A DNA stretch of 64,000 nt from Erwinia persicina (GTDB lineage: Bacteria; Pseudomonadota; Gammaproteobacteria; Enterobacterales; Enterobacteriaceae), in NCBI RefSeq assembly GCF_014838825.1, contig NZ_JACYMO010000001.1, positions 456,566 to 520,565 on the forward strand. The letters run 5' to 3'. Below, piece after piece: positions 27,817-43,858 of the stretch. The translations under genes and the position numbers were made by a program. Numbering within the stretch: the first letter of the stretch is position 1; every line of letters begins with the position of its first letter. Under the pieces are notes generated by a model. That model was not told the DNA's origin. It saw nothing but the letters and a program-made list of their open reading frames with translations, and made no database searches.

Positions 27817-28112
27817 TCATTCCATCCAGGGTTTGAAACAATGCGCCGACAACCCGGTAGCAAACGAGAGCCGGACTCAGGTAACCGGTCTGAAACCGTC
27901 ATCACTGGCGATGCGGCAAAGCGAAAGGGCTCATGCAGCGGCAGCTTCAGGTCCGAAGGTTATAATGCGAATAAATAATAAGAAAGGGATTATCTATAAC
28001 AACTATATCAAAAATGAGGGAGATGTATAGTAGCGGGAGAGCAAAGCCAGAGAGAAGATAAAGCAGGAGCGAACCGCACGGGGCGGCCCGCTCACTGAAG
28101 GAAAGCGCGAGA

Positions 28113-30713
28113 TTACTTCTTCGCGGTGACTTCCCATTTGCCGTCAACGAAGAACGCAGACCAGCCAGTGGCTTTTCCGTCTTTTTCTGTGCTGACATAC
28201 TGCTGCTTCGTTTTACGGCTGAAGCGCACCACGGCTTTATTGCCGTCCGGATCGGTCGCCGGGGCATCCGCCAGATAGCGCAGTTTCTCCGGTAAACGAT
28301 CGCGGAAGCGCTGCAACTCCTCCACCTGCGGCGCGCGAGTTTCACGCGATTTAGGGAAGGTGTTAGCGGCCAGGAACACCCCGGCAGCACCGTCACGCAG
28401 GACAAAGTAGGCGTCTGACTTCTCGCAAGGCAGCTCAGGCAGCGGAACCGGATCTTCCTTCGGAGGAGCCACTTCGCCGCTGCGCAGAATTTTACGCGTA
28501 TTTTTGCACTCATCGTTAGTACAGGACATGTACTTACCGAAGCGCCCCATTTTCAGGTGCATTTCAGAACCACACTTCTCACACTCAACGATCGGGCCGT
28601 CATAGCCTTTGATACGGAACTCGCCCTGCTCGATCTCGTAACCATCACACTCCGGGTTATTACCACAGACGTGCAGCTTACGCTGAGGGTCAATCAGGTA
28701 GCTGTCCATCGCCGTGCCACACTTCTGGCAGCGACGACGGGCGCGCAGCGCGTTGGTTTCCGCATCGTCCCCTTCGAGAATATTCAGCACTTCATTCTCA
28801 GGGATCAAATTAATCGTCTGCTTGCAGCGCTCTTTCGGCGGCAGCGCATAGCCGGAGCAGCCGAGGAATACGCCGGTGCTCGCCGTGCGGATCCCCATCT
28901 GACGGCTACAGGTCGGGCAGTCGATGGAGGTCAGGATCATCTGATTAGGCTGCATGCCGCCTTCTTCCGGATCCTTCTCTGCCTTCGCCAGCTGGTCGCT
29001 GAACTCGGCGAAGAACTGATCCAGCACCGCTTTCCACTGCGCTTCGTTTTTCGCGACTTTATCGAGGTTGTCTTCCATGTGGGCGGTGAAGTCATAATTC
29101 ATCAGATCGCGGAAGCTCTCTTCCAGCCGATCGGTGACGATTTCACCCATTTTTTCCGCATAGAAACGACGACTTTCCACCTTCACATATCCGCGATCCT
29201 GAATGGTCGAGATAATCGAGGCGTAGGTGGAAGGACGGCCGATACCGCGTTTTTCCAGCTCACGGACCAGAGAGGCTTCGCTGAAGCGTGCCGGTGGTTT
29301 GGTGAAGTGCTGGCTCGGAACCAGCTGCTGCAGGCTGAGTTCACTGCCTACCGCCACGTCGGGTAACACGCGATCTTCATCACCCTTACGCAGTGCCGCC
29401 ATGACGCGCGTCCAGCCGTCAAAGCGCAACGTGCGCCCTTTTGCCTTCAGTTTGAAATCGGCTGCTTCCACGGTCAGCGTGGTGGAGTCGTACTGCGCAG
29501 GCATCATCTGACAGGCCACGAACTGACGCCAGATCAGCTGATACAGCTTCTGGGCATCATTTTCCATGTCTTTCAGCTGTTCAGACTGCACTTTGACATC
29601 CGACGGACGGATGGCTTCGTGTGCTTCCTGCGAGTTTTCTTTGCTGCTGTAAACATTCGCCGCTTTCGGCAGGTATTTCGCACCGAATTCATCTTCAATG
29701 TAGCCGCGAACCATGCTGACCGCGTCCTGACTCAGGTTGGTTGAGTCAGTACGCATATAGGTAATATGGCCGGCTTCATACAGACGCTGGGCCATCATCA
29801 TGGTTTTCTTCACGCCAAAGCCAAGACGGGTGCTGGCTGCCTGCTGAAGCGTGGAGGTAATGAACGGGGCTCCAGGCTTACTGCTGGTCGGCTTATCTTC
29901 GCGATCGGCCACCACATAGCGTGCTTTTTCCAGCAGGCTGACGGCAGCATGGGTCTGCTCACGGTTGACCGGGCGGAAAGGCTTGTCGCCCTGATGGGTG
30001 ACCTGCATCGGCAGATCCACCCCTTTCGGCGTGGTCAGTTCAGCATTCAGGTCCCAGTACTCTTCCGGGACAAAGGCTTTAATTTCACGCTCACGCTCGA
30101 CCACCAGCCGCACCGCCACCGACTGGACGCGGCCAGCGGACAGCCCACGCGCCACTTTTTTCCACAGCAGCGGCGAGACCATATACCCCACCACGCGGTC
30201 CATAAAGCGGCGCGCCTGCTGGGCATTAACACGGTCGATATTCAGCTCACCCGGCTTTTCAAAGGCCTGGCGAATCGCATTTTTGGTGATTTCGTTAAAC
30301 ACCACGCGGCTGTACCGCGACTCATCGCCACCGATCACTTCCCGCAGGTGCCACGCAATGGCTTCCCCTTCGCGGTCAAGGTCCGTTGCGAGATAGATAT
30401 GGTCCGCTTTCTCAGCCAGCGCCTTCAGTTCAGCGACCACTTTTTCCTTGCCTGGCAGGATCTGATAATTCGCATCCCAGCCATGATAAGGATCGACGCC
30501 CATACGGTTAACCAGCGCCGTCTTTTCGTCTTTTTTGACCTTTTTGGTTGTTTTACTGGTTGTAGAGTCAGCGCTCTTTTTAACTGTTGATCCACTGGTC
30601 GGCAAATCGCGGATATGGCCCACGCTGGATTTAACCACGTAGTCATTACCGAGATATTTATTGATCGTTTTGGCTTTTGCCGGGGACTCAACTATTACGA
30701 GAGCTTTTCCCAT
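28113..30713 (-). CDS. topA: DNA topoisomerase I
   Basis: An 866-residue type IA topoisomerase that relaxes negative supercoils. The TOPRIM domain ([11 protein letters not shown] and DLDREGE at 111-117) is followed by the active-site region ITYMRTDST with Tyr319, as in E. coli. Three C-terminal zinc-finger units (CPTC, CQKC and CEKC with their partner cysteines) and a Topo C zinc-ribbon-like tail complete it. A long frame in another register within its 3' part (27947-28513) is a shadow. In E. coli yciN lies just upstream; here it is absent and the yeh-type operon follows instead. Confidence 0.98.
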
Positions 30714-31326
30714 AGTTACCTTTACCTGATTAAAACATCCGAGAGTATTTTGTGCCGTTTATGCTCATCACATCGCGCACTAACGTTAAGGTTATCGGGA
30801 TATAAAGATCCAACCCGGCTAACTTTTCATCAATTCGGTCTTAATAATGCACGTTGCAACCAATTGATAAACGGTACTTTTTACCACCTGTTAAGCGAAT
30901 CTCTAACATGGCGTAAAGTCTGTTTTACGCCCGGAACCCGAAACGCCCACACTCTACCTGATAAAATCTGTTACGCAACTTAATTAGCATCAAGCCTCCA
31001 TTTACGCCAGGAATGCCGTCAAAAAGAAAAAAAATTGTTCGCACCTTATCCACCTGATGGATCATTATCCGTAACGATAAAATAACCTGACGGTACGGCT
31101 ATAAAGGAAGAAAAGTCAGATTTTATGTTTCTGCGGCGCAGTATCGCAAGCCGGGGGGGATATCATCTGGATTTTTCCACTTGAACCCCCTTCTGCCGTT
31201 GATTACATTGACCCGTCGGCCTGTTACCGCAGCCGCTAAATAAAGCGGCAGGTGCCCGGAGAATCGCTTCTCCTTGACGGAGTTCGCCGTGCTGGCGCAC
31301 TCCGCGTTAACGAAAATGGAATCCTC
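30714..31326. other. Divergent intergenic region between topA and the yeh-type operon
   Basis: A 613-bp region without a convincing gene; yciN, expected here by comparison with E. coli, is not found. It must contain the topA promoters (minus strand) and the promoter of the operon starting at 31327. Visible structure: an 8-bp inverted repeat GGCGTAAA / TTTACGCC (30910-30931), and two hairpins in the operon leader, GGAGAA-TCGC-TTCTCC (31258-31273) and GGAGT / ACTCC with an inner GCC/GGC (31279-31303). Confidence 0.5.
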
Positions 31327-34300
31327 ATGACCACCTTGATCTATCAGGATGAAAAATCCCACAAATTCTGGACCGTTGTACAGCAACAGCAGGAACTCCA
31401 TCTCAACTGGGGGCGCGTGGGGACTCAGGGACAAAGCCAGATTAAAAGCTTTGACGATGAAGAACAGGCCAGAAAAGCGTGTGAAAAGTTAATAAAAGAA
31501 AAGACGCGCAAAGGGTATCAGCCACCGGATGAGGCGACGCTGGCCAGCGCCAGCCCGGACGCTACCGTCAAGGCATCTTCTCCCGTGAAGAAAACCGCTG
31601 TGCCCGATCCGGCCCCTGACGCCCTGCCTGAAGCGGCTCCGGCTCCGGTTGCACCACCAATCGCCACGGTGGCCAGCGATGCTGCCCCCCTGTGGCTGAC
31701 CGCAGGTCAGGCGATTGCTCTACCGCAAAAGCTGACGGTGCTGGCCCTGAGCCATCGTCACCGGCCGCTCCCACCTGCGGGCAAAGTGGAAGAGCCGTCT
31801 GAGCAGCTGCGGCGCATGAAAATACTGAGTCAGGAGGTCCGTAAGAACGGTCCTCTGCCGCTGGATGCCAGTCGCTGTGACAGCGACTGGCAGCAGGCGA
31901 TAGCCCTGGCGCAGGAGTGCCTGGCGGAGGGCAAAGCCATCCCTCAGCGCTCTCCGATGGCGGGTGCGGCAATGATTAAAATTAACCAGACTTACGCAGG
32001 CAGAAAAGCCACGCTGCTGATTGATGCCATTGTTGCTCACTATGGCCTGATGTATGCCACTGAGATGATGATTGCCAGCCTGCAGATTGGTCTCGACCGC
32101 GACTACCGCACCCGCCAGATTTCATTTTATCCTGCTGATATTGCCCCTGCCGGCTATCAGCAAAACGTTGCCGAGCATGAAATGCGTCTGCGCTGGCACC
32201 TTTCAGCTGCCCCTGAAGCGATGTGGCAGGCGTGTGCCGACCGTCTGATCGCCGCCCTGCCTCATACGCCTGCCTGGCGCAGGCCGCTGGTGGCGCTCCT
32301 GCTGCCGGAAAAACCTGAGCTGGCCGATGAGATCCTCAACCTGACCGGACCCGATGGTGATATCGGGGCGCTTGAGCTGTTAAAGATCACCGCTACCCGT
32401 GACAGCACGCTCCGCGCGCTGGACTCGTTTAAAAGCCTCGACGTTTTCGACAGCTGGTACTACGGTGAATTGCTCACCACCACGGTGCTGCTGGAACAGG
32501 GCGTAAGCGCCCTGCCGCGCTTTGCCCCCTATGCCCACGGCGATCGCTGCGGGGAAGTGCTGATGCATGTCAATCATCCGCTGGCGCTGGAGATGTTAAT
32601 TCGCGCGGCGGGCCAGGGTAAGCGCAGCTATGAGCGTGCGGCCAGGGCCAGCCAGCGTTTTCCTCACGCGGCTTTCACCGCGCTGGTTCGCCTGCTGAAC
32701 GGCAGAGAAGAGGCTCTCTGGCGCACCCAGCTGCATGCTTTACTGCATAATCAGCCGCAGCTGGCGGTTGAGGTCGCGCCGTGGCTGTCGCCGGAAGAGG
32801 CCGACCTGGTGAACCGCAGCCAGCAGAAGCTGAATGTGAAAACCGACTGCGCCAGCGCCGATATGCTGCCTGCTATCCTGGTGTCTCCCCCATGGCTGAA
32901 CAAAAAACAGGCCAGTAGCATTCCGCTGCTGTCGCTGGCGGTACAACCGGTCGCAGCAGTCTTCAACGGCGTGCCGGAAGATATCCTGTCAAGCTGGTCA
33001 AATCACAGTAAGCTGCAGGTCGCCGGTCTGCCGTCCGACCAGGTTCTGGCCCGTCTCGGCTTCACCAGCTGGAATCAGTCGCTGCCTGCCACGGCGGTCC
33101 AGGCCTATGAAGAGGACGATTACCCTCAGCTGCTCGCCGACTGGGCGACCAACCACGCGCATTATGCCAGCGACTGGAACCTTTATATTCTTCCCGCGCT
33201 GCCGCGAGAAAAAGCGCTTGGCCTGTGGAACGTTCTCAGCAGCGAACATCACACCGGCATCGCCCTGGTGATGGCCCACTTTGGTCTGGATGGGTTGCCT
33301 GGTTTTATCAACAGCATCGGACGCCAGCCGCAGGAAGCCCTGACCGTAGCCATCTGCGTCGGCAGTACCGAACTGGCGGTCCCTGTCGCCCGCGCTTTCT
33401 CTAAGTTGAAAACCCTGCGCGAAGAGGCGCGCAGCTGGCTGCTTAAATACCCGGAACATGCCGTAGCGGGACTGCTACCGATCGCGTTCGGCAAAGCGGG
33501 TGAGGCGCAGGATAATGCACGTCTGGCATTGCGCCTGCTGTTGGACAACGGCCACCAGGCGCTGATTGAAGAGGTCGCCGGACGGTATCAGCAGCCGGAG
33601 GTGCTGGCGGCGGTCAGTGCGCTGGTAGAGCTTGACCCGCTCAACGATTTCCCGGCGAAACGCCCGGCCCTGCCGCCTTTCTGGCAGCCGGTACTGTGGA
33701 CACGTCCGCAGTTGCACAACGGCAAGGCGCTGCCTGAAGAGGCGCTGACCCATTTGGGGACTATGCTGCGCTTCCCGACCGAAAATGGCCGCTATCCCGG
33801 CCTGGATCAGGTGAAAGCGGCCTGTACCCCGGCGTCGCTGGCCAACTTTGCCTGGGACCTGTACAACGCCTGGATGGCGGCCTCGGCCCCCCCTAAAGAG
33901 GGCTGGGCCTTCAGCACGCTGGGACTGTTTGGCAATGATGATATCGCCCGGCGGTTAACCCCGTTAATCCGCAGCTGGCCGGGTGAATCGCAGCATAAGC
34001 GGGCGGTTGCCGGCCTGGAGATCCTGGCCGATATTGGTACTGATATCGCGCTGATGCAGCTTAACGGTATTGCGCAGAAGCTGAAATTTAAAGCGTTGCA
34101 GGAGCGGGCACGGGAAAAAATCAGCCAGATCGCCGAAAAGCGTGAGCTGACGGTGGCAGAGCTGGAAGACCGCCTTGCGCCCGATCTGGGGCTGGACGAT
34201 AACGGCTCAATGCTGCTTGATTTTGGCCCACGTCAGTTTACCGTCAGCTTCGATGAGACGCTGAAACCCTTCGTCCGCGACGGCAGCGGCAGCCGCCTGA

Positions 34301-35121
34301 AGGATCTGCCTAAACCGAATAAAAGCGATGATGCCGGGCTGTCTGCCGATGCGGTAAATCGTTTCAAACTGCTGAAGAAAGATGCGCGCACCATCGCCAG
34401 CCAGCAGATCGCCCGTCTGGAAACCGCTATGTGTCAGCGCCGTCGCTGGACGGAGCAACAGTTCAGAGAGTTTCTGGTCGGTCACCCGCTGATTGGCCAC
34501 CTCACCCGCCGCCTGGTCTGGGGCGCGTATGATGCCGATAATCAGCTGATCAGCTGCTTCCGCGTGGCGGAAGACGACAGCTACAGTACCGCCGGAGATG
34601 ATCTCTACGTCCTGTCGCCGGATGCGACGCAGATCGGCATCCCCCACGTTCTTGAGATCCCACTGGCTGAAGCGGCGGCTTTTGGCCAGCTGTTTGCTGA
34701 CTATGAGCTGCTGCCGCCGTTCCGCCAGCTGGATCGCAACCGCTATCAGCTGACCGCAGAGGAAGCGGCATCGGTCGACCTGCAGCGCTGGCAGGGACGG
34801 CTTTGCCCGAGTGGCCGCCTGGCCGGCCTGACGGCCCGAGGCTGGCTGCGCGGCGTGCCGCAGGATGCCGGCTGGATCTGCTGGATGCTGAAACCGCTGG
34901 GCGATCTGACGCTGGTGCTGGAAATGGGAGAAGGACTGGGCGTTGGCATGGCACCGGATGAGTTTAACAAAGAGCAGACGCTGAGCAGCATCTGGCTGTG
35001 GGAGGGGGATGCGCACCAGTATGGCTGGGGAGAACGACACCCGCAGAAACAGCCGTTCTCGTGCCTGCACCCTGTCACCGCCAGCGAAATGCTCAGTGAT
35101 ATTGATTCGCTGTTTGACTAA
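31327..35121 (+). CDS. yehI: WGR and DUF4132 domain protein, YehI/MolR type
   Basis: A 1264-residue protein. The N-terminal WGR domain (residues 4-66, with NWGRVGTQGQSQIKSF) is followed by an Ala/Pro-rich linker (about 80-130), a long helical repeat-like region, and a C-terminal DUF4132 domain (about 920-1130) with DPDTG-free AYDADNQLISCFRVAEDD and IPHVLEIPLAEAAAFGQLF. E. coli YehI (once called MolR) has the same make-up; its role is not settled. WGR domains in PARPs contact nucleic acid or partner proteins. An in-frame ATG at 31252 would add 25 residues over the leader hairpins; the ATG at 31327 begins the conserved IYQDEKSHKFW segment and was chosen, though its ribosome-binding site (GGAA) is weak. 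It is the first gene of a five-gene operon. Confidence 0.85.
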   Translation: MTTLIYQDEKSHKFWTVVQQQQELHLNWGRVGTQGQSQIKSFDDEEQARKACEKLIKEKTRKGYQPPDEATLASASPDATVKASSPVKKTAVPDPAPDALPEAAPAPVAPPIATVASDAAPLWLTAGQAIALPQKLTVLALSHRHRPLPPAGKVEEPSEQLRRMKILSQEVRKNGPLPLDASRCDSDWQQAIALAQECLAEGKAIPQRSPMAGAAMIKINQTYAGRKATLLIDAIVAHYGLMYATEMMIASLQIGLDRDYRTRQISFYPADIAPAGYQQNVAEHEMRLRWHLSAAPEAMWQACADRLIAALPHTPAWRRPLVALLLPEKPELADEILNLTGPDGDIGALELLKITATRDSTLRALDSFKSLDVFDSWYYGELLTTTVLLEQGVSALPRFAPYAHGDRCGEVLMHVNHPLALEMLIRAAGQGKRSYERAARASQRFPHAAFTALVRLLNGREEALWRTQLHALLHNQPQLAVEVAPWLSPEEADLVNRSQQKLNVKTDCASADMLPAILVSPPWLNKKQASSIPLLSLAVQPVAAVFNGVPEDILSSWSNHSKLQVAGLPSDQVLARLGFTSWNQSLPATAVQAYEEDDYPQLLADWATNHAHYASDWNLYILPALPREKALGLWNVLSSEHHTGIALVMAHFGLDGLPGFINSIGRQPQEALTVAICVGSTELAVPVARAFSKLKTLREEARSWLLKYPEHAVAGLLPIAFGKAGEAQDNARLALRLLLDNGHQALIEEVAGRYQQPEVLAAVSALVELDPLNDFPAKRPALPPFWQPVLWTRPQLHNGKALPEEALTHLGTMLRFPTENGRYPGLDQVKAACTPASLANFAWDLYNAWMAASAPPKEGWAFSTLGLFGNDDIARRLTPLIRSWPGESQHKRAVAGLEILADIGTDIALMQLNGIAQKLKFKALQERAREKISQIAEKRELTVAELEDRLAPDLGLDDNGSMLLDFGPRQFTVSFDETLKPFVRDGSGSRLKDLPKPNKSDDAGLSADAVNRFKLLKKDARTIASQQIARLETAMCQRRRWTEQQFREFLVGHPLIGHLTRRLVWGAYDADNQLISCFRVAEDDSYSTAGDDLYVLSPDATQIGIPHVLEIPLAEAAAFGQLFADYELLPPFRQLDRNRYQLTAEEAASVDLQRWQGRLCPSGRLAGLTARGWLRGVPQDAGWICWMLKPLGDLTLVLEMGEGLGVGMAPDEFNKEQTLSSIWLWEGDAHQYGWGERHPQKQPFSCLHPVTASEMLSDIDSLFD

Positions 35122-35143
35122 TGTCCGGAAATAAGGAAAGACC

Positions 35144-36223
35144 ATGTCTGACATGTTACAGCGGCCCCCTGCCGCCGTGCTTTACGCCGCAGAACTGGCG
35201 CAGCTGATGCAGGATGACAGCGGCCCGCGTCCACCGGGCTGGCGTCTGAGCCTGCCCGCGGCTCGCGCCTTTATCCTGGGGGACAGCGGACGCGGCATCA
35301 CCGCCAAAGTGGTCACCCCGGTGGCCAGCGTGGAGCGCATGCTGGTCACGCTGGCCACCGGGCGCGGGCTGATGCTGGTTGGCGAACCGGGTACGGCAAA
35401 GTCACTGCTGTCGGAGCTGCTGGCCACCGCCATCAGCGGCGATGCAGGGCTGACCATCCAGGGGGGAGCCTCGGTCACCGAAGATCAGATAAAATATGCC
35501 TGGAATTATGCCCTGTTGATCAACCAGGGGCCGTCCACCGCCGCCCTGGTTCCGGCACCGCTGTATCAGGGAATGCGCGACGGTAAGATTGTGCGTTTTG
35601 AAGAGATTACCCGTGCCCCGCTGGAGGTGCAGGACTGCCTGCTGGGCATGCTTTCTGACCGGGTGATGGCGGTGCCAGAGCTCAGCGGTGAAGAGAGCCA
35701 GCTCTACGCCCGGGAAGGCTTTAATATCATTGCCACGGCCAACACCCGCGATCGGGGAGTGAATGAAATGAGCGCGGCGCTGAAGCGGCGTTTTGATTTC
35801 GAAACCGTGTTCCCGATCATGAATTTCCAGCAGGAACTGGATTTAGTGTCCACCGCCTCGGCCCGCCTGCTGGCGCACAGCGGTATTCCACACACCGTGC
35901 CGGACGACGTGCTGGAACTGCTGGTTAACACCTTTCGCGATCTGCGCAGCGGCGGGGAGAAAAAGAGCGCGATGGACAGCCTGAACGCGATTATGTCCAC
36001 CGCCGAAGCCGTTAACGTAGCCCATGCGGTTGGGGTGCGCGCCTGGTTCCTTGAGCAGCGCGCCAGCGAACCGGCCGACCTGGTGGACTGTATCGGTGGT
36101 ACCATCGTTAAAGATAATGAGGATGACCGGGCACGCCTGCGTCGCTACTTTGAGCAGCGCGTCGGCAGCCGCACTGGAGCGCACTGGCAGGCCTACTATC
36201 AGGCACGCCACCGCCTGCCATGA
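35144..36223 (+). CDS. yehL: MoxR-family AAA+ ATPase, YehL type
   Basis: A 359-residue AAA+ ATPase of the MoxR group. Walker A is GEPGTAKS (80-87), Walker B is RFEEI (151-155), sensor 1 is IIATANTRD with Asn200, and the arginine-finger region is SAALKRRFDFE. MoxR ATPases usually act with a VWA-domain partner as chaperones or in metal insertion; the partner here would be the VWA protein three genes on. AAGGAA precedes the start, 22 bp after the WGR/DUF4132 gene. Its stop overlaps the next start (ATGATG region), showing coupling. Confidence 0.88.
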   Translation: MSDMLQRPPAAVLYAAELAQLMQDDSGPRPPGWRLSLPAARAFILGDSGRGITAKVVTPVASVERMLVTLATGRGLMLVGEPGTAKSLLSELLATAISGDAGLTIQGGASVTEDQIKYAWNYALLINQGPSTAALVPAPLYQGMRDGKIVRFEEITRAPLEVQDCLLGMLSDRVMAVPELSGEESQLYAREGFNIIATANTRDRGVNEMSAALKRRFDFETVFPIMNFQQELDLVSTASARLLAHSGIPHTVPDDVLELLVNTFRDLRSGGEKKSAMDSLNAIMSTAEAVNVAHAVGVRAWFLEQRASEPADLVDCIGGTIVKDNEDDRARLRRYFEQRVGSRTGAHWQAYYQARHRLP

Positions 36224-38523
36224 TGCTCACGCCCACAGAGCCGCTGATCCTCGGCATTCGCCATCACAGCCCCGCCTGCGCCCGCCTGGTGCAGCGCAGC
36301 ATCAAACAGCTGCGCCCGGCCTGGGTGCTGATCGAAGGGCCGGCTGATTTTACACCCCGCCTCGGCGAGCTGCTGCTGCCGCATACCCTGCCGGTTGCCA
36401 TCTATAGCTATTGTCAGTTTCAGGATCACCAGAGGCCCGGTACAGGGGCCTGGACCCCCTTTGCGGAGTGGTCCCCGGAGTGGCAGGCCCTGCGTGCTGC
36501 AGGAGAAATCGGCGCAGAGACCTGTTTTATTGATTTGCCCGTCTGGGCCCTGTCTGACGATGATGACTGTGAAGACGCAGACGCACACTATCACCGACGC
36601 CAGCAGGCCATGCTCGACGCCTGCGGCATGGAGAACAGTGATGCGCTGTGGGACCACCTGTTCGAGGATGAGGCGCAGCAGGCCAGCCTGCCGGAGGCGC
36701 TGGCACTGTGGTTTCAGCAACTGCGCGCGGACAGCGGCGGCAGCGTGCAGGATCGGCAACGGGAAGCCTACATGGCAAGATGGATCGCCTGGGCGGTTGC
36801 ACAGAACAGCGGCCCGGTGCTGGTCGTCTGCGGGGGCTGGCACGCCCCGGCCCTTGCCCACCTGTGGCGCGGTGCTGACGCAACCGAGCGTCCTCCGTTA
36901 CCGGAACCGGTGGTGCAGGACGCGGTCAGCGGCAGCTATCTGACGCCCTACAGTGAAAAACGACTGGACGTGCTGGCGGGCTATCTGTCCGGGATGCCCG
37001 CCCCGGTCTGGCAGGACTGGTGCTGGCGAGTCGGCCAACGACAGGCCGGACTGTCTCTGCTGGAAGCGGTGCTGGCCGCGCTGCGCCAGCGCCATTTACC
37101 GGCATCAACAGCGGATATGGCCAACGCCCTGAGCCAGGCGCAGGCGCTGGCGGCCCTGCGCGGACATCGTCTCCCTCTGCGTAACGACTGGCTGGATGCG
37201 CTGGCTGGCAGCCTGATCAAAGAAGCCCTCAATACGCCGCTGCCGTGGAGCTATCGCGGTACCCTGCAGTCCGGCACGGACCCCATCCTTATGGTGCTGG
37301 TGGATATACTCGCAGGCCAGCGTTTTGGTGAGCTGGCCACCACTACCCCGCAACCGCCCCTGCCGCAGGATGTGAACGGCGAACTGGCGCGGGTCGGCAT
37401 CACGTTGCCCGCCACGCTGTCGCTTAACCGCTACGACGCGACAGGCCTGCAACAAAGTCAGGTTCTGCACCGTCTTGCCGTACTGGCGATCCCGGGAATA
37501 ACCTGCCTTACGGGTAACACGCTGGCTCTGTCGGGTGACGGCGAAGAGCAGTGGGCGCTGACGCGGCCGTTAACGCAGCATGCCGCCCTGATCGAAGCTG
37601 CTCGCTATGGTGCAACCCTGGAAGAAGCCTCCCGTAACCGGCTGTCATCCGCCATGGCAGAGTCAGAGGGCATTGGTCCCCTGTCGGGCTGGCTGCAGCG
37701 TGCGACGCTCGCCGGTCTGTCGGCGTTCAGCCAGGTACTGCTTACCCGGCTGGAGCAGCAGATTGCGCTTGAAAGTCATTTTGAAGCGATGGGTCCACCG
37801 CTGGAGGTGCTTTACGCCCTGTGGCGTCACGACTCAATCAACGGCATGCGCGACGCGGCAGTTCTGCAAACCACCCTGCGGGCGGCGGTCGACCGTACCC
37901 TGTGGCTGGCGGAGTCGACCGGACTGATTGCCACGCCCCTGGTCAGCGCCCACCTGCACAGCTGGCAGGCGCTGTGCCATATTCTGCGTGATGAACAGAA
38001 CCGTCAGCCCGCAGGCGATCTTGTGCCGCTGCCGCGTGCGCTGGCCGTGCTGACCCGCCGGTTCAGGGCGAAGGAAGCCTGCGCGCTCAGCCGGGGAGCC
38101 GCACTGGGTGCCCTGATCCGACTGGAGCAACCCGACGCCGGTGCGCAGGCGGCGCTGGCGCTACTGGACGATCTTCCGCCAGATTTGCTGGGTGAAGCAC
38201 TGCATGGACTGATTGCCCTTGCCCGCCATCAGCTGGCCTCACACCCCGCGTTTATCGTCGGTTTTAATCAGCGGCTGATGCAGCTTGACGATGATCCGTT
38301 TATTCACGCCCTGCCCGACATGCGGGCGGCGCTCGCCTGGCTGCCACCGCGTGAACGGGCAGCGCTGGCGCGTCAGGTGCTGGCGCATTATCAGCTCACA
38401 CACCTGCCTGAGCATCTGTTACAGACGCCGCAGGCGACATCCTGTACACCCGCCGAACTCTTCCGTCACCAGCAGCAGGATCAACGTGCGGCCGACCAGC
38501 TGCGCGCCTGGGGCATACTGTAA
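36220..38523 (+). CDS. yehM: DUF5682 protein, YehM type
   Basis: A 767-residue protein of unknown function. The N-terminal segment ILGIRHHSPACARLV (10-24), then VLIEGPADF (36-44) and later VCGGWHAPAL (around 205) form the conserved core of DUF5682; the paired GxRHH/GxWH motifs and the EGP acid could be a metal- or active-site pattern like that of ChaN/EreA-type proteins, but this is speculation. The rest is helical. Two start codons, 36220 and 36223, are possible; the first overlaps the yehL stop. E. coli YehM has the same place between the MoxR and VWA genes. Confidence 0.8.
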   Translation: MMLTPTEPLILGIRHHSPACARLVQRSIKQLRPAWVLIEGPADFTPRLGELLLPHTLPVAIYSYCQFQDHQRPGTGAWTPFAEWSPEWQALRAAGEIGAETCFIDLPVWALSDDDDCEDADAHYHRRQQAMLDACGMENSDALWDHLFEDEAQQASLPEALALWFQQLRADSGGSVQDRQREAYMARWIAWAVAQNSGPVLVVCGGWHAPALAHLWRGADATERPPLPEPVVQDAVSGSYLTPYSEKRLDVLAGYLSGMPAPVWQDWCWRVGQRQAGLSLLEAVLAALRQRHLPASTADMANALSQAQALAALRGHRLPLRNDWLDALAGSLIKEALNTPLPWSYRGTLQSGTDPILMVLVDILAGQRFGELATTTPQPPLPQDVNGELARVGITLPATLSLNRYDATGLQQSQVLHRLAVLAIPGITCLTGNTLALSGDGEEQWALTRPLTQHAALIEAARYGATLEEASRNRLSSAMAESEGIGPLSGWLQRATLAGLSAFSQVLLTRLEQQIALESHFEAMGPPLEVLYALWRHDSINGMRDAAVLQTTLRAAVDRTLWLAESTGLIATPLVSAHLHSWQALCHILRDEQNRQPAGDLVPLPRALAVLTRRFRAKEACALSRGAALGALIRLEQPDAGAQAALALLDDLPPDLLGEALHGLIALARHQLASHPAFIVGFNQRLMQLDDDPFIHALPDMRAALAWLPPRERAALARQVLAHYQLTHLPEHLLQTPQATSCTPAELFRHQQQDQRAADQLRAWGIL

Positions 38524-38533
38524 AGGAACGCTG

Positions 38534-39670
38534 ATGCCCGAACTCTCTGATATTTTATCCAGCCGTGAGCTGCAGCGCTGGCGTCTGCTACTGGGTGAGG
38601 CGGCAGAAAACAGCCTCAGCGGGCTGGATGAGCAGGCCCGCGCCGTGGATAACGCCCTGGAGTGGCTGTACGGGCGCGATCCGCAGCGTATCCAGCGTGG
38701 AGAACGTCACGGCGGAATGCAGGGGTCGCAGCTCACCACGCCAGAATGGATCAACGCCATCCACCAGCTGTTTCCGGCTGAGGTGATAGAGCGACTGGAA
38801 AGTGACGCAGTGCTGCGGTTTGGCATCGATGACGTGGTCACCAATCGGGATGTCCTGGAGCGCATTGCGCCCTCGGAGGGACTGCTGCGCGCCGTCCTGC
38901 ATACCAAACACCTGATGAACCCTGAGGTATTACAGGCAGCACGCCGGCTGGTGCGCCAGGTCGTGGAGCAGATTATGGCACGGCTGGCGACTGACGTCCG
39001 CCAGGCCTTTTCTGGCTCCCGCGACCGGCGGCGGCGGTCACCGGTCGCGATCGCTCGCAACTTCGATTTTAAAAGCACGCTGCGTGAAAACCTGCATCGC
39101 TGGGACCCGGAACGCCGTCGTCTGTACATTGAATCCCCGGTGTTTATCAGCCGGGTGAAACGCCACAGTGAAAAATGGCAGCTGGTGCTGCTGGTCGATC
39201 AGAGCGGATCGATGGTGGATTCGGTGATCCACTCAGCGGTAATGGCCGCCTGCCTGTGGCAGCTGCCGGGCATTCGTACCCATCTGGTGGCATTTGATAC
39301 CAGCGTGGTTGACCTGACGGCCGACGTGCAGGACCCGGTCGATTTGCTGATGAAGGTGCAACTGGGTGGCGGCACGGATATCGGCAAAGCCGTGCAGTAC
39401 GGCCGGCAGCTGATCGCGCAGCCGGAAAAAAGTGCCATTGTGCTGGTCAGCGATTTCTTCGAGGGCGGCTCCCCCTCTCTGCTGATAAACCAGGTCAGAC
39501 AGTGCGTGCAGGACGGCACTAAAGTCCTCGGTCTGGCCGCGCTGGACAACAAAGCCGCACCCAGTTACGACCGGGAAATGGCCCAGCGGCTGGTGAATGT
39601 CGGGGCGCAGATCGCCGCGATGACGCCGGGAGAGCTGGCGGCGTGGCTCGCAGAGAATCTACAATCATGA
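38534..39670 (+). CDS. yehP: VWA-domain protein, YehP type
   Basis: A 378-residue protein, the same length as E. coli YehP. The C-terminal half is a von Willebrand factor A domain with a complete MIDAS metal site: DQSGS (222-226), Thr281 in GGGTDIG, and Asp307 in VLVSDFFEGG. The N-terminal half is helical and basic near GSRDRRRRSPVAIARNF. Domains of this type bind a partner through a divalent metal and pair with MoxR ATPases. A longer in-frame opening exists upstream inside yehM, but the ATG at 38534 has AAGGAA in front and fits the family. Its stop overlaps the next start (ATGA). Confidence 0.88.
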   Translation: MPELSDILSSRELQRWRLLLGEAAENSLSGLDEQARAVDNALEWLYGRDPQRIQRGERHGGMQGSQLTTPEWINAIHQLFPAEVIERLESDAVLRFGIDDVVTNRDVLERIAPSEGLLRAVLHTKHLMNPEVLQAARRLVRQVVEQIMARLATDVRQAFSGSRDRRRRSPVAIARNFDFKSTLRENLHRWDPERRRLYIESPVFISRVKRHSEKWQLVLLVDQSGSMVDSVIHSAVMAACLWQLPGIRTHLVAFDTSVVDLTADVQDPVDLLMKVQLGGGTDIGKAVQYGRQLIAQPEKSAIVLVSDFFEGGSPSLLINQVRQCVQDGTKVLGLAALDNKAAPSYDREMAQRLVNVGAQIAAMTPGELAAWLAENLQS

Positions 39671-41679
39671 GTGCTCCCGTACGCAATGAACTGCTCGAAC
39701 TGACGCCCCAGGCGCTGATCGCCCTGAGCAACGCTGGCCTGGTTAAACGCAGCCAGAAGGAGATTGCCGCCGGAAACCTGCCGCTGTTCAGCGATGCAGA
39801 AGGTGTGCTGACGGCCCGGTTCAGCGAGGGCACCGTGACGCGCCTGAACCAGGGCCAGGGGCTGAAAGAGGCAAGCTGCACCTGCAACGCCAGCGGCATG
39901 TGTCGCCATCGGGTGATGCTGGTACTGGGTTACCAGCAGATCCACACCCCGGTGACACCCCCCCCGGAAACCCGCTGGCAGCCAGGGGAATGGCTGGACG
40001 AACTCGCCTCCCTGCCTGCGACCACCCGCAAACGGGCGCAGCAGCTGGCCGGAAAAGGGCTGGTCATTGAACTTCACTGTGCCCCAGGCCAGGTGCCTGC
40101 CGCCAGGCTGCCGATGAGCGACGTGCGGTTTTTCTCGCGCAGCAGTATGCGCTTCGCCCGCTGTGACTGTATTGAGGGCACGCTGTGCGAACATATTATC
40201 CTTGCGGTGCAGGCCTTTGCGGCGGCCGAAGCCCGCCATCCCGGTTTCGATCATCTCAGCTGGCAGACCGGGGCCGGGCTCGCCGGGGAACCCGCGACGC
40301 AGATGCCGCAGGAGGATGGCCTGGCGCAGCTGAATGATCTGAGTTACGCCCTGTGGAGCGGCGGCATCAGCCAGCCTGCCGTAACCTGCTCACCTCTGCT
40401 GGTTCGCGCCGCGCGTCACGCACAGCAGGCGGACTGGCGCTGGGTCACGCTGGCAGTGCAACAGGTATCAGAAGGCATTGATGACTTTCATCAACGCGCA
40501 TCCCACTATCGTGCAGGGGTGTTTCTCAGTCAGTTCGCCGCACTGACGGCCCGCCTGCGCGCCGCCCGGGAGATGGCCGGCATCGCCGCTGAAGATCGGA
40601 CGCCCACGCAGCCCTGGCGCAGTCTGGTCGGTCACGGCGTGCAGGACCAGGTCAGACTGGATCACCTGCGGCTGGTGTCGCTGGGGATGCAGAGCTGGCA
40701 GAACGAGCAGCATTATGGGGTGCGTATCTGGTTTACCGATCCCGATACCGGCAGCGTGCTGCATCTCTCGCGTCAGTGGCCACTGGCGGAACAGGAGAAT
40801 GCCCCGGGCTGGCAGCGGCGGATTGCCGGCTTTCAGGCGGATATGCTGGCGGGCGGCCAGATTATTTCCCAGGCGGCGCAGCGTGATGCCAAGGGTGAAC
40901 TTCACCTCAGCGCCCGCGATCGCCTGAATGCCGTGGCCCCCCTGACGCCCGCCGCCTGGGCCATTCCTGATATTCCACTCTGTCAGCCCGGCGTGGTGGC
41001 GCTGCGCCAGTACCTGCTGCATCGTCCACCTGCCTTTACCCGTCCGCTGAGTGAAAGCGATAACCTGTTTATTCTGCCGCTGGGTGAGTGTTTGAGCCTG
41101 CGCTGGGATGCCGGGCGTCAGACGCTGGAAGCCGAGGCGATCAGCGGCCCCGGCGAAGATAATGTGCTGTGTCTGTCACTCAGCGTCTCCCCCGCCGCGC
41201 CGGGTGCCATTGACGCGCTTATCCGCGTGCTGCAACAGCAGGACGATCCGCCCTGTCAGGTCTCCGGCCTGGTTTCCGTGGCCGGAGGGAAACTGACGCT
41301 GGAACCTCTGGTGGTGATGACCGGTAAACGGGCCTGGGTACTGCAGGCCGGTCCGCCTTCGCCGCAGGCTCTGCCGACGGCTGCCGTTGACCATCCCCTG
41401 CCGCTTTCGCTGCAGCTGCTTCAGCGCTGCCAGCAGATGCTGGTCGACTGGCTGCATAACGGGTTGCATCATCAGGAGCAGCGGGCCTGCCGGGAGGCCG
41501 AAGCCCTGGCAGCCGATCTTCAGCGCTGTGGATTTGCAAAGCTGGCGAAACTGGCGGCTCAGATCCCCACACGACTGCGGGGTGCTGACCCTGAGGAGCT
41601 GGTGAAGACGCTGACCGCCTTTGTGCTGCTGCGCGACCGTCTGGAGCAGGAGTGTCTGCTGATGCCGTCAGCGTTTTAA
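39667..41679 (+). CDS. yehQ: Twin SWIM zinc-finger protein, YehQ type
   Basis: A 670-residue protein with two SWIM-type zinc motifs: C71-T-C73...C79-R-H81 and C166-D-C168...C174-E-H176. SWIM fingers bind DNA or protein. The remainder is helical with no recognised domain. It begins at an ATG overlapping the stop of the VWA gene (ATGA) and is the last gene of the operon; a hairpin follows at 41685-41708. E. coli YehQ is the corresponding member of the yeh cluster. An in-frame ATG at 39643 lies inside the previous gene and was not chosen. Confidence 0.85.
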   Translation: MSAPVRNELLELTPQALIALSNAGLVKRSQKEIAAGNLPLFSDAEGVLTARFSEGTVTRLNQGQGLKEASCTCNASGMCRHRVMLVLGYQQIHTPVTPPPETRWQPGEWLDELASLPATTRKRAQQLAGKGLVIELHCAPGQVPAARLPMSDVRFFSRSSMRFARCDCIEGTLCEHIILAVQAFAAAEARHPGFDHLSWQTGAGLAGEPATQMPQEDGLAQLNDLSYALWSGGISQPAVTCSPLLVRAARHAQQADWRWVTLAVQQVSEGIDDFHQRASHYRAGVFLSQFAALTARLRAAREMAGIAAEDRTPTQPWRSLVGHGVQDQVRLDHLRLVSLGMQSWQNEQHYGVRIWFTDPDTGSVLHLSRQWPLAEQENAPGWQRRIAGFQADMLAGGQIISQAAQRDAKGELHLSARDRLNAVAPLTPAAWAIPDIPLCQPGVVALRQYLLHRPPAFTRPLSESDNLFILPLGECLSLRWDAGRQTLEAEAISGPGEDNVLCLSLSVSPAAPGAIDALIRVLQQQDDPPCQVSGLVSVAGGKLTLEPLVVMTGKRAWVLQAGPPSPQALPTAAVDHPLPLSLQLLQRCQQMLVDWLHNGLHHQEQRACREAEALAADLQRCGFAKLAKLAAQIPTRLRGADPEELVKTLTAFVLLRDRLEQECLLMPSAF

Positions 41680-41684
41680 CAGCA

Positions 41685-41708
41685 TAACGCCCGCAAAAGC
41701 GGGCGTTA
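41685..41708. terminator. Hairpin between the yeh-type operon and sohB
   Basis: TAACGCCCGC-AAAA-GCGGGCGTTA, a perfect 10-bp stem between two convergent stop codons. It lacks a long T-run on either side, but its place suggests shared termination. Confidence 0.65.
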
Positions 41709-41716
41709 GCAGCAGG

Positions 41717-42766
41717 TTACAGCAGCGGTTTATCGCCGCGCTGCCACAGGCGCAGCAGCAGACGCTCGGCGCTGGCAGAGGCACTGTCGGTGAAACGGCT
41801 CATCACACTTTTACGACGTGCATAGCGCACGCCGACCACCTGGTGGTCGTTCATGCGTTCGATGATCAGGTCGTCGCTGGTGCTGATGGCGTCTACCAGA
41901 CCCTTTTCCAGCGCCTGCGTGCCGTACCAGTGCTCACCGGTTGCCACGCTGTCAATATCCAGTGAAGGCCGCATCTGATGCACAAACTGTTTAAACAGCA
42001 CGTGCGTCTCGTTCAGATCTTCGCGAAACTTCTCACGCCCCTCCTCGGTATTTTCACCAAACAGCGTCAGCGTCCGCTTATATTCACCCGCCGTGTGCAG
42101 CTCAACGTCGATTTCATTACGCTTCAGCAGGCGGTTAAAGTTGGGGATCTGTGCCACGACACCGATAGAGCCGATGATCGAGAACGGCGCCGCGACAATC
42201 CGGTCAGCCACACAGGCCATCATATAGCCCCCGCTGGCCGCGACTTTGTCTACGGCCACGGTGAGGGGGATTTTTTTGTCACGCAGCCGCTGCAGCTGGG
42301 ATGCGGCCAGTCCGTAGCCGTGTACCACGCCGCCCGGGCTTTCCAGACGCAGCAGAACTTCATCGCCGGCGGCCGCCACCGCCATCACCGCAGACACCTC
42401 TTCACGCAGCGAAGAGACTTCCCCGGCATCCATGCTGCCCTTAAAATCCAGCACGTAGAGGGTCGGTTTTTCCTGCGGTGGAGTATGCCCCAGCTTCGCC
42501 TGCTGCTTTGCCGCCTTTGTTTCCTGCTTGTCTTTTTTCTTCTGCGCTTTGTGCCACAGTTTTTGCTGCAGCGGCTTCATCTTCGCCAGCCGCATCGTGT
42601 CCTGCATGTCGCGGTAGCGCTCGTCGAGGTGCGTCAGCTTTAGCTGCCCGCCCTGAGCACGTTTACGCATGGCCAGGGTGGCGATAGTGATGGCAATCGC
42701 CACAATCGCCACCACTACGGTGACGGTCTTCGCCAGGAAAAGTCCATAATAAGAGAGTAGGTCCAC
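41717..42766 (-). CDS. sohB: Inner-membrane S49 peptidase SohB
   Basis: A 349-residue member of the signal-peptide-peptidase A (S49) family. It has an N-terminal membrane segment (about 8-28), a charged lysine-rich stretch (KAQKKKDKQETKAAKQQAK), then the protease domain with FKGSMDAGEVSSLREEV, LESPGGVVHGYG and the catalytic serine region DKVAASGGYMMACVAD. It starts with GTG at 42766, preceded by AAGGCGGA. A 107-bp tandem duplication covers its first 15 codons, its ribosome-binding site and upstream DNA, so a second copy of the start lies 107 bp upstream. Confidence 0.94.
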   Translation of the reverse strand: MDLLSYYGLFLAKTVTVVVAIVAIAITIATLAMRKRAQGGQLKLTHLDERYRDMQDTMRLAKMKPLQQKLWHKAQKKKDKQETKAAKQQAKLGHTPPQEKPTLYVLDFKGSMDAGEVSSLREEVSAVMAVAAAGDEVLLRLESPGGVVHGYGLAASQLQRLRDKKIPLTVAVDKVAASGGYMMACVADRIVAAPFSIIGSIGVVAQIPNFNRLLKRNEIDVELHTAGEYKRTLTLFGENTEEGREKFREDLNETHVLFKQFVHQMRPSLDIDSVATGEHWYGTQALEKGLVDAISTSDDLIIERMNDHQVVGVRYARRKSVMSRFTDSASASAERLLLRLWQRGDKPLL

Positions 42767-42934
42767 TCAATCCGCCTTGATTTACATTATGTTAGAGACA
42801 GGCTTAGTGTAGCTGAGTCACGCTCAGTGACGGTCTTCGCCAGGAAAAGTCCATAATAAGAGAGTAGGTCCACTCAATCCGCCTTGATTTACATTATGTT
42901 AGAGACAGGCTTAGTGTAGCTGAGTCACGCTCAG
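42721..42934. repeat. Exact 107-bp tandem duplication at the 5' end of sohB
   Basis: Unit 1 (42721-42827) and unit 2 (42828-42934) read identically, base for base as far as I compared. Each unit contains, on the minus strand, a putative promoter region, the AAGGCGGA ribosome-binding site, the GTG start and the first 15 codons of sohB. 107 is not a multiple of three, so the outer copy is out of frame with the gene. Confidence 0.93.
42787..42873 (-). CDS. 28-residue upstream ORF created by the sohB duplication
   Basis: The outer repeat copy has the same GTG start and ribosome-binding site as sohB. Translation would give the first 16 residues of SohB (MDLLSYYGLFLAKTVT) and then 12 unrelated residues before TAA at 42787-42789, 20 bp ahead of the real sohB start. 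It may be translated because the initiation region is identical to that of sohB; a function is not implied. Confidence 0.45.
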   Translation of the reverse strand: MDLLSYYGLFLAKTVTERDSATLSLSLT

Positions 42935-43096
42935 GAGTCGCCTGCAACCCGTTTCAGTCTCCCAATAACCCTGGCGGGCGATTGAACTCAGCGCCGTTTT
43001 CAGGCATAAAACACTTTATTCAATCCGTGCAAGGGCTTACGTCAGGCGAAAATCGCAGTCTGCCCCTGATATTCCCCATCGCCAGAGGATCTCCCC

Positions 43097-43858
43097 GTGT
43101 ACTATCAACCGAAAAGCGATCTGCTCAATAACCGAATTATTCTTGTGACCGGTGCCAGCGATGGTATAGGTCGTGAAGCCGCCCTCTCTTACGCCCGCTA
43201 CGGCGCGCAGGTGCTGCTGCTGGGCCGGAATGCAGAGAAACTGCAACGCGTCTGTAACGAAATAAACGCGCACGGCCAGGCCACCGCCCTGTGGTTTACT
43301 CTCGATCTGGAAACCGCCACAGCCGAAAGCTGCCGTGTACTGGCAGAGACACTTGCCACTCAGGTGCCGCGCCTTGACGGTGTGCTGCATAACGCCGGGC
43401 TTCTGGGTGATGTGATCCCCATGGATCAGCAGGACCCGGCCACCTGGCAACAGGTGATGCGCGTCAATATTGACGGCACGTTTTTTCTCACCCAGGCACT
43501 GCTCCCCCTGCTGCTCAAATCCGATGCAGCATCACTGGTCTTCACCTCGTCAAGCGTCGGTCGTCAGGGACGCGCGGGCTGGGGAGCTTACTCTGTGTCG
43601 AAGTTTGCCACCGAGGGCATGATGCAGGTGCTGGCCGAAGAGTATGATGCGCGTCAGCTGCGGGTGAACTGCATTAATCCCGGCGGCACCCGGACCAAAA
43701 TGCGCGCCAGCGCTTTTCCGCATGAGGATGCGCGCAAGCTCAAGACGCCAGCCGAAATTATGCCGCTTTATCTCTGGCTGATGGGCGATGACAGCAGGCG
43801 CAAAACCGGGCAGACCTTTGATGCGCAACCCGGACGCAAAGCGGGGGCAGCAGAATAA
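43097..43858 (+). CDS. yciK: SDR-family oxidoreductase YciK
   Basis: A 253-residue short-chain dehydrogenase/reductase. The cofactor motif TGASDGIG (18-25), the NAG segment (99-101), the catalytic Ser152 in TSSSVG, and Tyr165/Lys169 in YSVSK are all present; C-terminal MPLYLWLMGDDSRRKTG is specific for YciK. The physiological substrate is unknown. It begins with GTG, preceded by AGAGGA, and overlaps btuR by one base in TAATG, as in E. coli. Confidence 0.94.
   Translation: MYYQPKSDLLNNRIILVTGASDGIGREAALSYARYGAQVLLLGRNAEKLQRVCNEINAHGQATALWFTLDLETATAESCRVLAETLATQVPRLDGVLHNAGLLGDVIPMDQQDPATWQQVMRVNIDGTFFLTQALLPLLLKSDAASLVFTSSSVGRQGRAGWGAYSVSKFATEGMMQVLAEEYDARQLRVNCINPGGTRTKMRASAFPHEDARKLKTPAEIMPLYLWLMGDDSRRKTGQTFDAQPGRKAGAAE

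What the first reader, a model, noticed from the sequence alone, without database searches (positions are those of the whole stretch)
31327..41679. Five-gene WGR-MoxR-DUF5682-VWA-SWIM operon inserted between topA and sohB
The genes are tightly packed (22 bp, 4-bp ATGA-type overlap, 10 bp, 4-bp overlap) and encode a WGR/DUF4132 protein, a MoxR AAA+ ATPase, a DUF5682 protein, a MIDAS-intact VWA protein and a twin-SWIM protein. The order equals E. coli yehI-yehL-yehM-yehP-yehQ, which is elsewhere on that chromosome. MoxR-VWA pairs are known chaperone-like units and related ternary sets have been proposed as conflict or stress systems; the job of this set is not established. All key motifs are intact, so the machine is probably active. 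A substrate-recognition role for the WGR and SWIM proteins and an effector role for DUF5682 is inference.
Basis: partly seen in the sequence, partly recalled or inferred. Interest (0 to 1): 0.72.

Follow-up and report, generated by a model that had tools for sequence, protein, structure and literature searches.

The report
MoxR-VWA machine with TIKI-like enzyme
A five-gene bacterial operon, known from E. coli but still without an established job, looks like an ATP-driven protein machine tied to a predicted protein- or ester-cutting enzyme, which makes its function testable.

Summary
In detail: five intact, tightly packed genes at 31327-41679 in an Erwinia-like chromosome. The operon takes the place of a yciN-like gene between topA and sohB in 4 of 37 genus genomes and has higher GC. 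It is the counterpart of E. coli yehF/H-L-M-P-Q; its first gene matches the split yehF-yehH better than yehI. The unit is real: in 398 Pseudomonadota genomes all 15 full DUF5682 loci lie beside a YehL-type MoxR, and 15 of 16 such MoxR genes lie beside DUF5682. Two actinobacterial loci fuse DUF5682 to VWA. New here: the N-terminal domain of DUF5682 is confidently modelled and best resembles the TIKI/TraB/ChaN/Ere fold, with His15/16, Glu39 and His208 invariant; I had written this down from motifs before the fold search. Best reading: a MoxR-VWA remodeller coupled to a TIKI-type hydrolase, with DUF4132 and SWIM proteins as target binders. WGR is optional (12 of 40). In four relatives with the operon beside metG, a LexA-box-like site precedes the first gene; the Erwinia copies lack one upstream. 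I saw no defence-island signal and no relative in viral contigs. Activity and substrate are untested.

The parts
31327..35121 (+). WGR-DUF4132 protein, 1264 aa (WGR about 7-69; DUF4132 988-1173)
   Evidence: Pfam; closest to the split yehF-yehH of MG1655
35144..36223 (+). MoxR AAA+ ATPase of the YehL subfamily, 359 aa, Walker A/B and ALKRRF motifs intact
36220..38523 (+). DUF5682 protein, 767 aa: N-terminal TIKI/TraB/ChaN/Ere-like domain (about 1-262) and C-terminal alpha-solenoid (about 411-765)
   Evidence: models; fold matches
36253..36267 (+). first motif G-I-R-H-H (residues 12-16) of the predicted TIKI-like site
   Evidence: R14 H15 H16 in 63/63 (biased by the search pattern) and in 24/24 sequences found by profile, window included
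36832..36843 (+). second motif G-G-W-H (residues 205-208) of the predicted TIKI-like site
   Evidence: G205 and H208 in 63/63 and 24/24
38534..39670 (+). VWA_CoxE protein (YehP), 378 aa, MIDAS intact
39667..41679 (+). SWIM protein (YehQ), 670 aa, two CxC..CxH motifs
31014..31326 (+). upstream region that begins where homology to operon-less relatives ends (31013 in five of six comparisons, 31027 in one)
   Evidence: BLASTN; alignment
31181..31209 (+). promoter-like TTGAAC-17-TACATT, much alike in the four carrier genomes (inference; below the scan threshold)
   Evidence: not listed
41686..41707. perfect hairpin AACGCCCGC-AAAA-GCGGGCGTT between the convergent SWIM and sohB genes; possible two-way terminator (inference; not listed)
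   Evidence: sequence

Best explanation
The operon encodes one ATP-driven protein-remodelling machine whose working part is DUF5682, a predicted hydrolase (most likely a protease or esterase-like enzyme) of the TIKI/TraB/ChaN/Ere type. Proposed cycle: (1) the SWIM zinc-finger protein and the DUF4132 solenoid (with WGR here) recognise a target, possibly on nucleic acid; (2) the VWA protein, through its MIDAS, docks DUF5682 and/or the target on the MoxR hexamer; (3) ATP hydrolysis by MoxR twists or pulls the VWA-bound part, as reported for NorQ-NorD; (4) this opens or feeds the His15/16-Glu39-His208 site of DUF5682, which cuts the target. Shown here: the genes, their near-obligate linkage, intact ATPase and MIDAS motifs, DUF5682-VWA fusion, the predicted fold and the invariant residues. 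Inferred: hydrolase activity, a protein substrate, the order of steps and the roles of DUF4132 and SWIM. The trigger is unknown in Erwinia; in relatives with the operon beside metG, LexA-box-like sites point to DNA damage.
For: Linkage in both directions in 398 Pseudomonadota genomes: 15/15 full DUF5682 loci have a YehL-type MoxR next door and 15/16 YehL-type MoxR genes (E<=1e-40) have DUF5682 next door (one further DUF5682 match of 19 bits, under the cut-off, not counted). Of 69 DUF5682 loci with enough flank, 69 have MoxR and 64 have VWA on the same strand within 9 kb; reading, the other five are Lentzea loci with a VWA frame on the opposite strand about 9 kb away. DUF5682-VWA single reading frames in L015 (Streptomyces plasmid) and L046 (Kitasatospora). 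Fold: domain model with mean pLDDT 91.9; VIA-align 2 ranks 1-12 are a Tetrahymena complex IV chain in three entries (Z 9.7-10.0), ChaN 2g5g (Z 8.8, rmsd 5.1, 166 aligned), HopBA1 5t09 (Z 8.3, 3.6, 148), and 6a8j, 6a7h, EreC 6xcs/6xcq and 2qgm/3b55/2rad (Z 6.6-6.9); the first unrelated chain has Z 6.1. ChaN, HopBA1, Bcr135 (3b55) and RRSP are given as TIKI superfamily in PMC6254334 (passages), and PMC10060162 reports a TraB-family subunit in that complex IV (figure legend). The reading was written down from the motifs before any fold search. R14-H15-H16, E39, E87, E149, R169, R181-E182, G205 and H208 are invariant in 24/24 sequences found by profile rather than by motif, window included. In 29 TraB-family sequences of the same order GxxH, Glu 26 residues on, Arg, and GxxH 26 residues on are invariant; DUF5682 has the same order with spacings 24 and 27.
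Against: Foldseek alone gives no match below E 0.001; the ChaN match has rmsd 5.1; the Ere group at Z 6.6-6.9 is within 1 of unrelated chains (6.1), which the tool calls tied, and it warns that Z under 8 may mean only a common arrangement. Profile comparison with TraB is weak (E 0.018, probability 2.6%, only around the second motif). The second Glu of the 2His/2Glu motif is not placed, and no residue superposition was possible. Position 12 is Pro, not Gly, in 17 of 63. TIKI-fold proteins need not be proteases (ChaN binds haem by its PDB title; PMT lacks the motif). L064 (Planctomycetaceae MAG, below my flank limit) holds DUF5682 with no MoxR or VWA found in 18 kb, and G341 has a YehL-type MoxR without DUF5682. 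The Erwinia copies have no LexA-box-like site upstream.
Confidence: 0.5

Rival explanations
1. Maturation chaperone: MoxR and VWA insert a metal or cofactor into, or fold, DUF5682 (or another client), as CoxD/CoxE and NorQ/NorD do for their enzymes. DUF5682 is then the client, not a partner that acts on others.
For: NorQ-NorD is a MoxR-VWA pair that enables metal insertion into its target (abstract of PMC13036017); CoxD is a MoxR needed for the metal cluster of CO dehydrogenase (passage of PMC3893208). That such pairs lie beside their client's genes is recalled. The VWA belongs to VWA_CoxE. DUF5682-VWA fusion fits a client as well as a partner.
Against: It leaves DUF4132 or DUF5691 and SWIM unexplained, although they are usual companions; no known metalloenzyme lies in the operon.
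Confidence: 0.25
2. Anti-phage or plasmid-conflict system of the MoxR-vWA 'ternary' type, in which the complex senses an invader and releases the DUF5682 effector.
For: Patchy spread (4 of 37 in the genus over the cut-off; 19 of 392 in the family; 14 of 398 in the phylum), site replacement with higher GC, tandem DUF4132 frames (25 of 88 loci with two or more, split frames included), a plasmid copy beside a type I restriction system, and the general scheme of PMC7159879 (passages).
Against: No defence-island signal: 5 model matches, at most 5 ORFs, among 137 flanking ORFs (no matched control). The operon proteins match no PADLOC model apart from WGR_XIII at E 0.003. None of 16 pattern matches in viral contigs is a relative. 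At least 80% of yehL-Q is in 5162 of 5426 E. coli genomes. No variable effector on the vWA.
Confidence: 0.17
3. Stress or DNA-damage remodelling unit without enzymatic cutting: MoxR-VWA remodels nucleoprotein targets found through DUF4132/WGR and SWIM, and DUF5682 is a scaffold whose TIKI-like domain binds a ligand.
For: LexA-box-like sites before the first gene in 4 of 4 metG-located operons with that region covered; molR listed as LexA-regulated (passage); a DUF4132 gene, drA0166, rises on DdrO depletion in Deinococcus radiodurans (passage).
Against: WGR is in 12 of 40 DUF4132 proteins; LexA-box-like sites are absent upstream of the Erwinia copies and boxes of other phyla are not placed before the operon; invariance of the His/Glu set suggests chemistry.
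Confidence: 0.08

Closest known systems
E. coli yehF/yehH-yehI-yehK-yehL-yehM-yehP-yehQ (YehL subfamily of MoxR ATPases)
   Same: Same gene families, order and strand; 56-84% protein identity for L, M, P, Q
   Different: E. coli site is metG-btsSR, the first gene is split (yehF/yehH), a tandem DUF4132 copy (yehI) and yehK are added, and a LexA-box-like site precedes yehF; the window has none of these
Class II loci: SWIM-DUF5691-MoxR-DUF5682-VWA (Rhizobium, Deinococcus, Methylosinus and others)
   Same: Same MoxR-DUF5682-VWA core plus a SWIM protein
   Different: SWIM leads, and DUF5691 takes the place of DUF4132; DUF5682 is 25-28% identical in the three plasmid loci aligned
TIKI/TraB/ChaN/Ere superfamily
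   Same: Predicted fold and the order GxxH, Glu, Arg, GxxH
   Different: Carries a long alpha-solenoid and is tied to a MoxR-VWA pair; sequence similarity is below clear detection
NorQ-NorD and CoxD-CoxE chaperone pairs
   Same: MoxR AAA+ with a VWA partner; Pfam VWA_CoxE
   Different: Those serve nitric oxide reductase or CO dehydrogenase; here the usual companions are DUF5682, SWIM and DUF4132 or DUF5691
MoxR-vWA ternary conflict systems (VMAP, iSTAND, FtsH, beta-propeller)
   Same: MoxR-vWA pair plus a third constant protein (passages of PMC7159879)
   Different: Third protein is DUF5682; the bpMoxR model scores 16.7 against a cut-off of 27; no variable effector on the VWA; the terms YehL, SWIM, DUF4132, WGR and TraB do not occur in that paper's main text

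Membership tests
YehL-type MoxR operon | MoxR of the YehL subfamily with Walker A and B | tested here: met
   84% identity to YehL; motifs
YehL-type MoxR operon | MoxR-DUF5682-VWA adjacent in that order | tested here: met
   general rule
YehL-type MoxR operon | SWIM protein plus DUF4132 (class I) or DUF5691 (class II) | tested here: met
   class I here; 49 class I, 15 class II (DUF5691 found by my seed profile in 10), 5 other of 69
[quoted passage not shown]
   model pLDDT 91.9; ChaN Z 8.8, HopBA1 Z 8.3, Ere group 6.6-6.8 among the top 12. Caution: predicted model, Ere rows tied with unrelated rows, Foldseek itself no E<0.001
TIKI/TraB/ChaN/Ere superfamily (DUF5682 N-domain) | two His and first Glu of the 2His/2Glu set | tested here: met
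   H15/H16, E39, H208 invariant 63/63 and 24/24, by order along the chain only; motif set named in PMC6254334 (passages)
TIKI/TraB/ChaN/Ere superfamily (DUF5682 N-domain) | second Glu of the 2His/2Glu set in the site | tested here: inconclusive
   E87, E149 and E182 are invariant candidates, no residue superposition was available
TIKI/TraB/ChaN/Ere superfamily (DUF5682 N-domain) | sequence-profile similarity to TraB (PF01963) | tested here: inconclusive
   hhalign E 0.014-0.018 in the right register, five unrelated operon profiles 0.28-0.56
TIKI/TraB/ChaN/Ere superfamily (DUF5682 N-domain) | hydrolase activity | not testable with these tools
   needs purified protein
MoxR-vWA ternary conflict systems | MoxR-vWA pair | tested here: met
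MoxR-vWA ternary conflict systems | third component VMAP, iSTAND, FtsH or beta-propeller | tested here: inconclusive
   Pfam shows none of these in the five proteins and bpMoxR lies under its cut-off; VMAP and iSTAND were not searched with models of their own
MoxR-vWA ternary conflict systems | variable effector domain fused to the vWA | tested here: not met
   378-aa VWA with VWA_CoxE only; the two VWA fusions that the script flagged among 93 loci join it to DUF5682; it looked for no other fusion
Known anti-phage systems (PADLOC 2.0.0) | match to a system's protein models | tested here: not met
   one WGR_XIII match at E 0.003, nothing else up to 0.1
Defence-island member | defence genes enriched next door | tested here: not met
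   5 model matches at E<=1e-10, at most 5 ORFs, among 137 of 217 nearest flanking ORFs; no matched control set was run

The most novel reading that the evidence does not exclude
The operon is an unrecognised class of AAA+ protease: a MoxR hexamer with a VWA adaptor gates a TIKI-type peptidase (DUF5682), aimed by SWIM and DUF4132 proteins, and in Escherichia it belongs to the SOS response as a device that removes particular proteins from damaged DNA or from invading nucleoprotein.
Probability: 0.2. Interest if true: 0.9.

Novelty: new variant of a known kind. Interest (0 to 1): 0.6.

Why it matters
YehL is one of seven named MoxR subfamilies (PMC3893208, passage), and its job is unknown as far as the papers I saw show. 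At least 80% of yehL-Q is present in 5162 of 5426 complete E. coli genomes, yet a reduced-genome strain lacks it (PMC10652928, passage). If DUF5682 is a TIKI-type hydrolase, MoxR-VWA machines gain an enzymatic arm and the subfamily gets a direct assay: named residues to change, a named complex to purify and a named stress to apply in E. coli K-12.

Tried and rejected
Defence island: flank census with PADLOC and Pfam gave no recurrent neighbour (no family in more than 2 of 137 ORFs). Phage carriage: 16 pattern matches in viral contigs, none a relative (one short pattern, so distant relatives could be missed); one unannotated phage-collection record, MT835988.1, has a 26% match, not followed. 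Plasmids: 34 of 72,556 records match, some of chromosome size.

SOS control in general: rejected. Boxes typical of Actinobacteria and Alphaproteobacteria (recalled motifs) are rare and not placed just before the operon (read by eye). In the window the only candidate near the start lies inside the first gene (31366-31385, shared with G131 only), so I do not count it. In relatives with the operon beside metG it stands: E. coli 13/20, G042 12/20, G056 16/20 and, as a test after those three, G757 14/20. A first look at G757 found none because its three tandem DUF4132 genes begin further upstream; G815 runs off its contig and could not be tested. Chance is about 0.9% per 130 bp, taken from all scanned loci, these boxes included. 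The four are related (G757 metG is 98.7% identical to the E. coli protein, so it may be Escherichia too) and are not independent events.

Sequence search of solved structures with the DUF5682 profile found only helical proteins without a link to the N-domain, and with the TraB profile mostly designed helical proteins, so the Tetrahymena chain could not be tied to the TraB family by sequence. Rfam gave nothing at gathering score for 28000-44000. No tRNA in the window. The whole-protein fold search was dominated by alpha-solenoids, so I folded the domain alone. An apparent long DUF5682 frame in G354 and G368 is overlap with the MoxR frame, not fusion.

Rows dropped: L001, L006 and L008 (duplicates or weak) from the census; 24 of 93 loci for short flanks, among them L064, which lacks MoxR and VWA. 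The five 'other' loci are L015, L028, L061, L063 and L073. The motif counts come from loci found with a pattern that holds RHH, so RHH is biased there; one search repeats the count on sequences found by profile. Of the 80 loci, 75 passed the length and stop filter and 62 of those, with the window, went into the first fold alignment, 59 with the window into the second.


Full report
Observation. The window lies in a 4.8-Mb genome. A contig of genome G137 of the same genus has the same length (955,574) as an Erwinia rhapontici H1 contig that carries the nearest named relative, so I infer the genus Erwinia.

How it got there. The topA-sohB gap in 37 genus genomes is 453-764 bp in 32, about 11.0 kb in 4 (the carriers G000, G131, G137, G138) and 32 kb in one, G153. 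All four carriers hold the same operon at this site; a fifth genome, G125, has only a weak DUF5682 match under the cut-off. Against six relatives without it, homology stops at window 31013 on the left (31027 in one) and at 41687-41718 on the right. In 26 genomes a small gene of Pfam DUF2498 (yciN by recall) lies there by coordinates, a fragment remains in G153, and the gene has no match in the four carriers nor in six others, whose gaps are 453-537 bp. The operon is 62.8% GC against 55.4% for the rest of the window. It is therefore most simply a replacement in one part of the genus. In E. coli, G042, G056 and G757 (genera g43, g57 and g366; g366 may be Escherichia) the operon sits between metG and btsSR, and elsewhere also on plasmids. 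One genome per genus, 6 of 119 genera of the family hold DUF5682 over the cut-off, and 19 of 392 genomes in a larger draw.

Is it one unit? Yes. In 398 Pseudomonadota genomes (one sample, two searches) there are 15 full DUF5682 loci in 14 genomes and 16 YehL-type MoxR genes in 15 genomes; 15 pairs lie side by side, and the one exception is a MoxR in G341. Of 80 named loci from many phyla plus the others at hand, 93 were scored and 69 have enough flank: MoxR in 69, VWA on the same strand in 64 and, by reading, on the other strand about 9 kb away in 5; class I (DUF4132 and SWIM) 49, class II (SWIM2, with DUF5691 found in 10) 15, other 5. The list is the best 80 of at least 577 relatives. L064, with too little flank to count, shows DUF5682 with neither partner. 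DUF5682 and VWA are one reading frame in L015 and L046. DUF4132 genes are often tandem: 14 loci with two and 11 with three frames of 88 (split frames inflate this). WGR is present in 12 of 40 DUF4132 proteins and DUF4132 in 40 of 40, so WGR is an option, not a core part. MoxR and VWA change least: against G131 MoxR 97, VWA 96, WGR-DUF4132 90, DUF5682 88 and SWIM 87%.

What DUF5682 is. From the alignment I wrote down that residues 1-230 look like the TraB/TIKI/ChaN/Ere type: a GxxH-like motif after the first strand, a Glu about 24 residues later, an Arg-Glu pair and a second GxxH. AlphaFold2 gives the whole protein at pLDDT 90.9 and the domain alone at 91.9. VIA-align 2 on the domain lists a Tetrahymena complex IV chain (Z about 10; that complex contains a TraB-family subunit, PMC10060162, figure legend; I could not match chain to subunit), then ChaN, HopBA1, 6a8j/6a7h, EreC and the Bcr135 group, before the first unrelated fold at Z 6.1. 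PMC6254334 (passages) gives ChaN, HopBA1, Bcr135 and RRSP as TIKI superfamily and describes the 2His/2Glu site. The counterparts H15/H16, E39 and H208 are invariant. Foldseek E-values are weak, the lower VIA rows are tied with unrelated ones and the profile comparison is marginal, so the fold claim rests on the structure alignment plus motifs. The C-terminal part resembles alpha-solenoids. The first position of motif 1 is Gly in 46 and Pro in 17 of 63.

How it probably works. MoxR and VWA proteins typically act together; in NorQ-NorD a finger of the VWA domain enters the ATPase pore and ATPase activity is proposed to twist and stretch a linker (abstract, PMC13036017). With DUF5682 fused to VWA in two loci, I place DUF5682 on the VWA, opened or fed by MoxR, with SWIM and DUF4132 or DUF5691 choosing the target. 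The main rival makes DUF5682 the client of a metal-insertion chaperone. The data do not decide between them.

Trigger. E. coli molR (yehF/yehH by recall) is listed as LexA-regulated (passage, PMC11039860), and yehF RNA values reach 1.14 in the table of an SOS time course (passage, PMC11002266; taken as log2, the unit was not in the passage). I find LexA-box-like sites within 130 bp before the first gene in E. coli, G042, G056 and G757, all beside metG. No such site precedes the Erwinia operons. A Deinococcus radiodurans operon with a DUF4132 gene is strongly upregulated when the damage regulator DdrO is depleted (passage, PMC8533742). This points to DNA damage in some lineages only.

Known or new. 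The operon and the YehL subfamily are known (PMC3893208, passage). In the open-licence library no paper holds DUF5682 or DUF5691 and three hold DUF4132. I saw none on the function of this set in listings that were mostly capped: yeh names 30 of 693 shown, nearly all unrelated words, domain terms 10 of 10 and 15 of 54, MoxR subfamilies 15 of 193, SOS with molR or yehF 15 of 1,653, and MoxR with TraB, ChaN-like, Ere or TIKI terms 12 of 47. Most subscription papers are not in that library, so prior notice of the fold cannot be excluded. Strain DGF-298 lacks yehI to yehQ (passage, PMC10652928), so the set is dispensable there.

Noticed in passing
L009:11475-15267 (E. coli MG1655 yehF-yehH): yehF and pseudogene yehH together align end to end with the window's intact 1264-aa WGR-DUF4132 protein, so K-12 carries a split copy of gene 1 beside the tandem copy yehI.
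   Followed up: partly
G153:C1:2336341-2368663 (within L154 and L155): In one genus genome topA and sohB lie 32 kb apart, with a short remnant of the yciN-like gene near sohB; something else may have been inserted at or near the same site.
   Followed up: no
G341:C21:108752-109810 (L188:9241-10428): YehL-type MoxR without DUF5682; a 756-aa frame lies just upstream on the same strand and matches none of my profiles.
   Followed up: partly
L064:5604-8177: DUF5682 gene in a Planctomycetaceae MAG with no MoxR, VWA or SWIM found by my profiles in 18 kb; a possible stand-alone member.
   Followed up: no
L010 (Iodobacter fluviatilis plasmid pl1): The five-gene set (SWIM in two frames) plus an extra DUF4132 gene on a 77-kb mobilizable plasmid, with insertion sequences upstream and a type I restriction system downstream.
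   Followed up: partly
E. coli metG/DUF4132/yeh region: PMC9334617 (passages) reports a resistance transposon inserted in this DUF4132 region in an ST131 branch; the set may be affected there.
   Followed up: no
G815:C43:12777-14864 (in L194): DUF5682 with one in-frame TAG in an Enterobacteriaceae genome, possibly a decaying copy.
   Followed up: no
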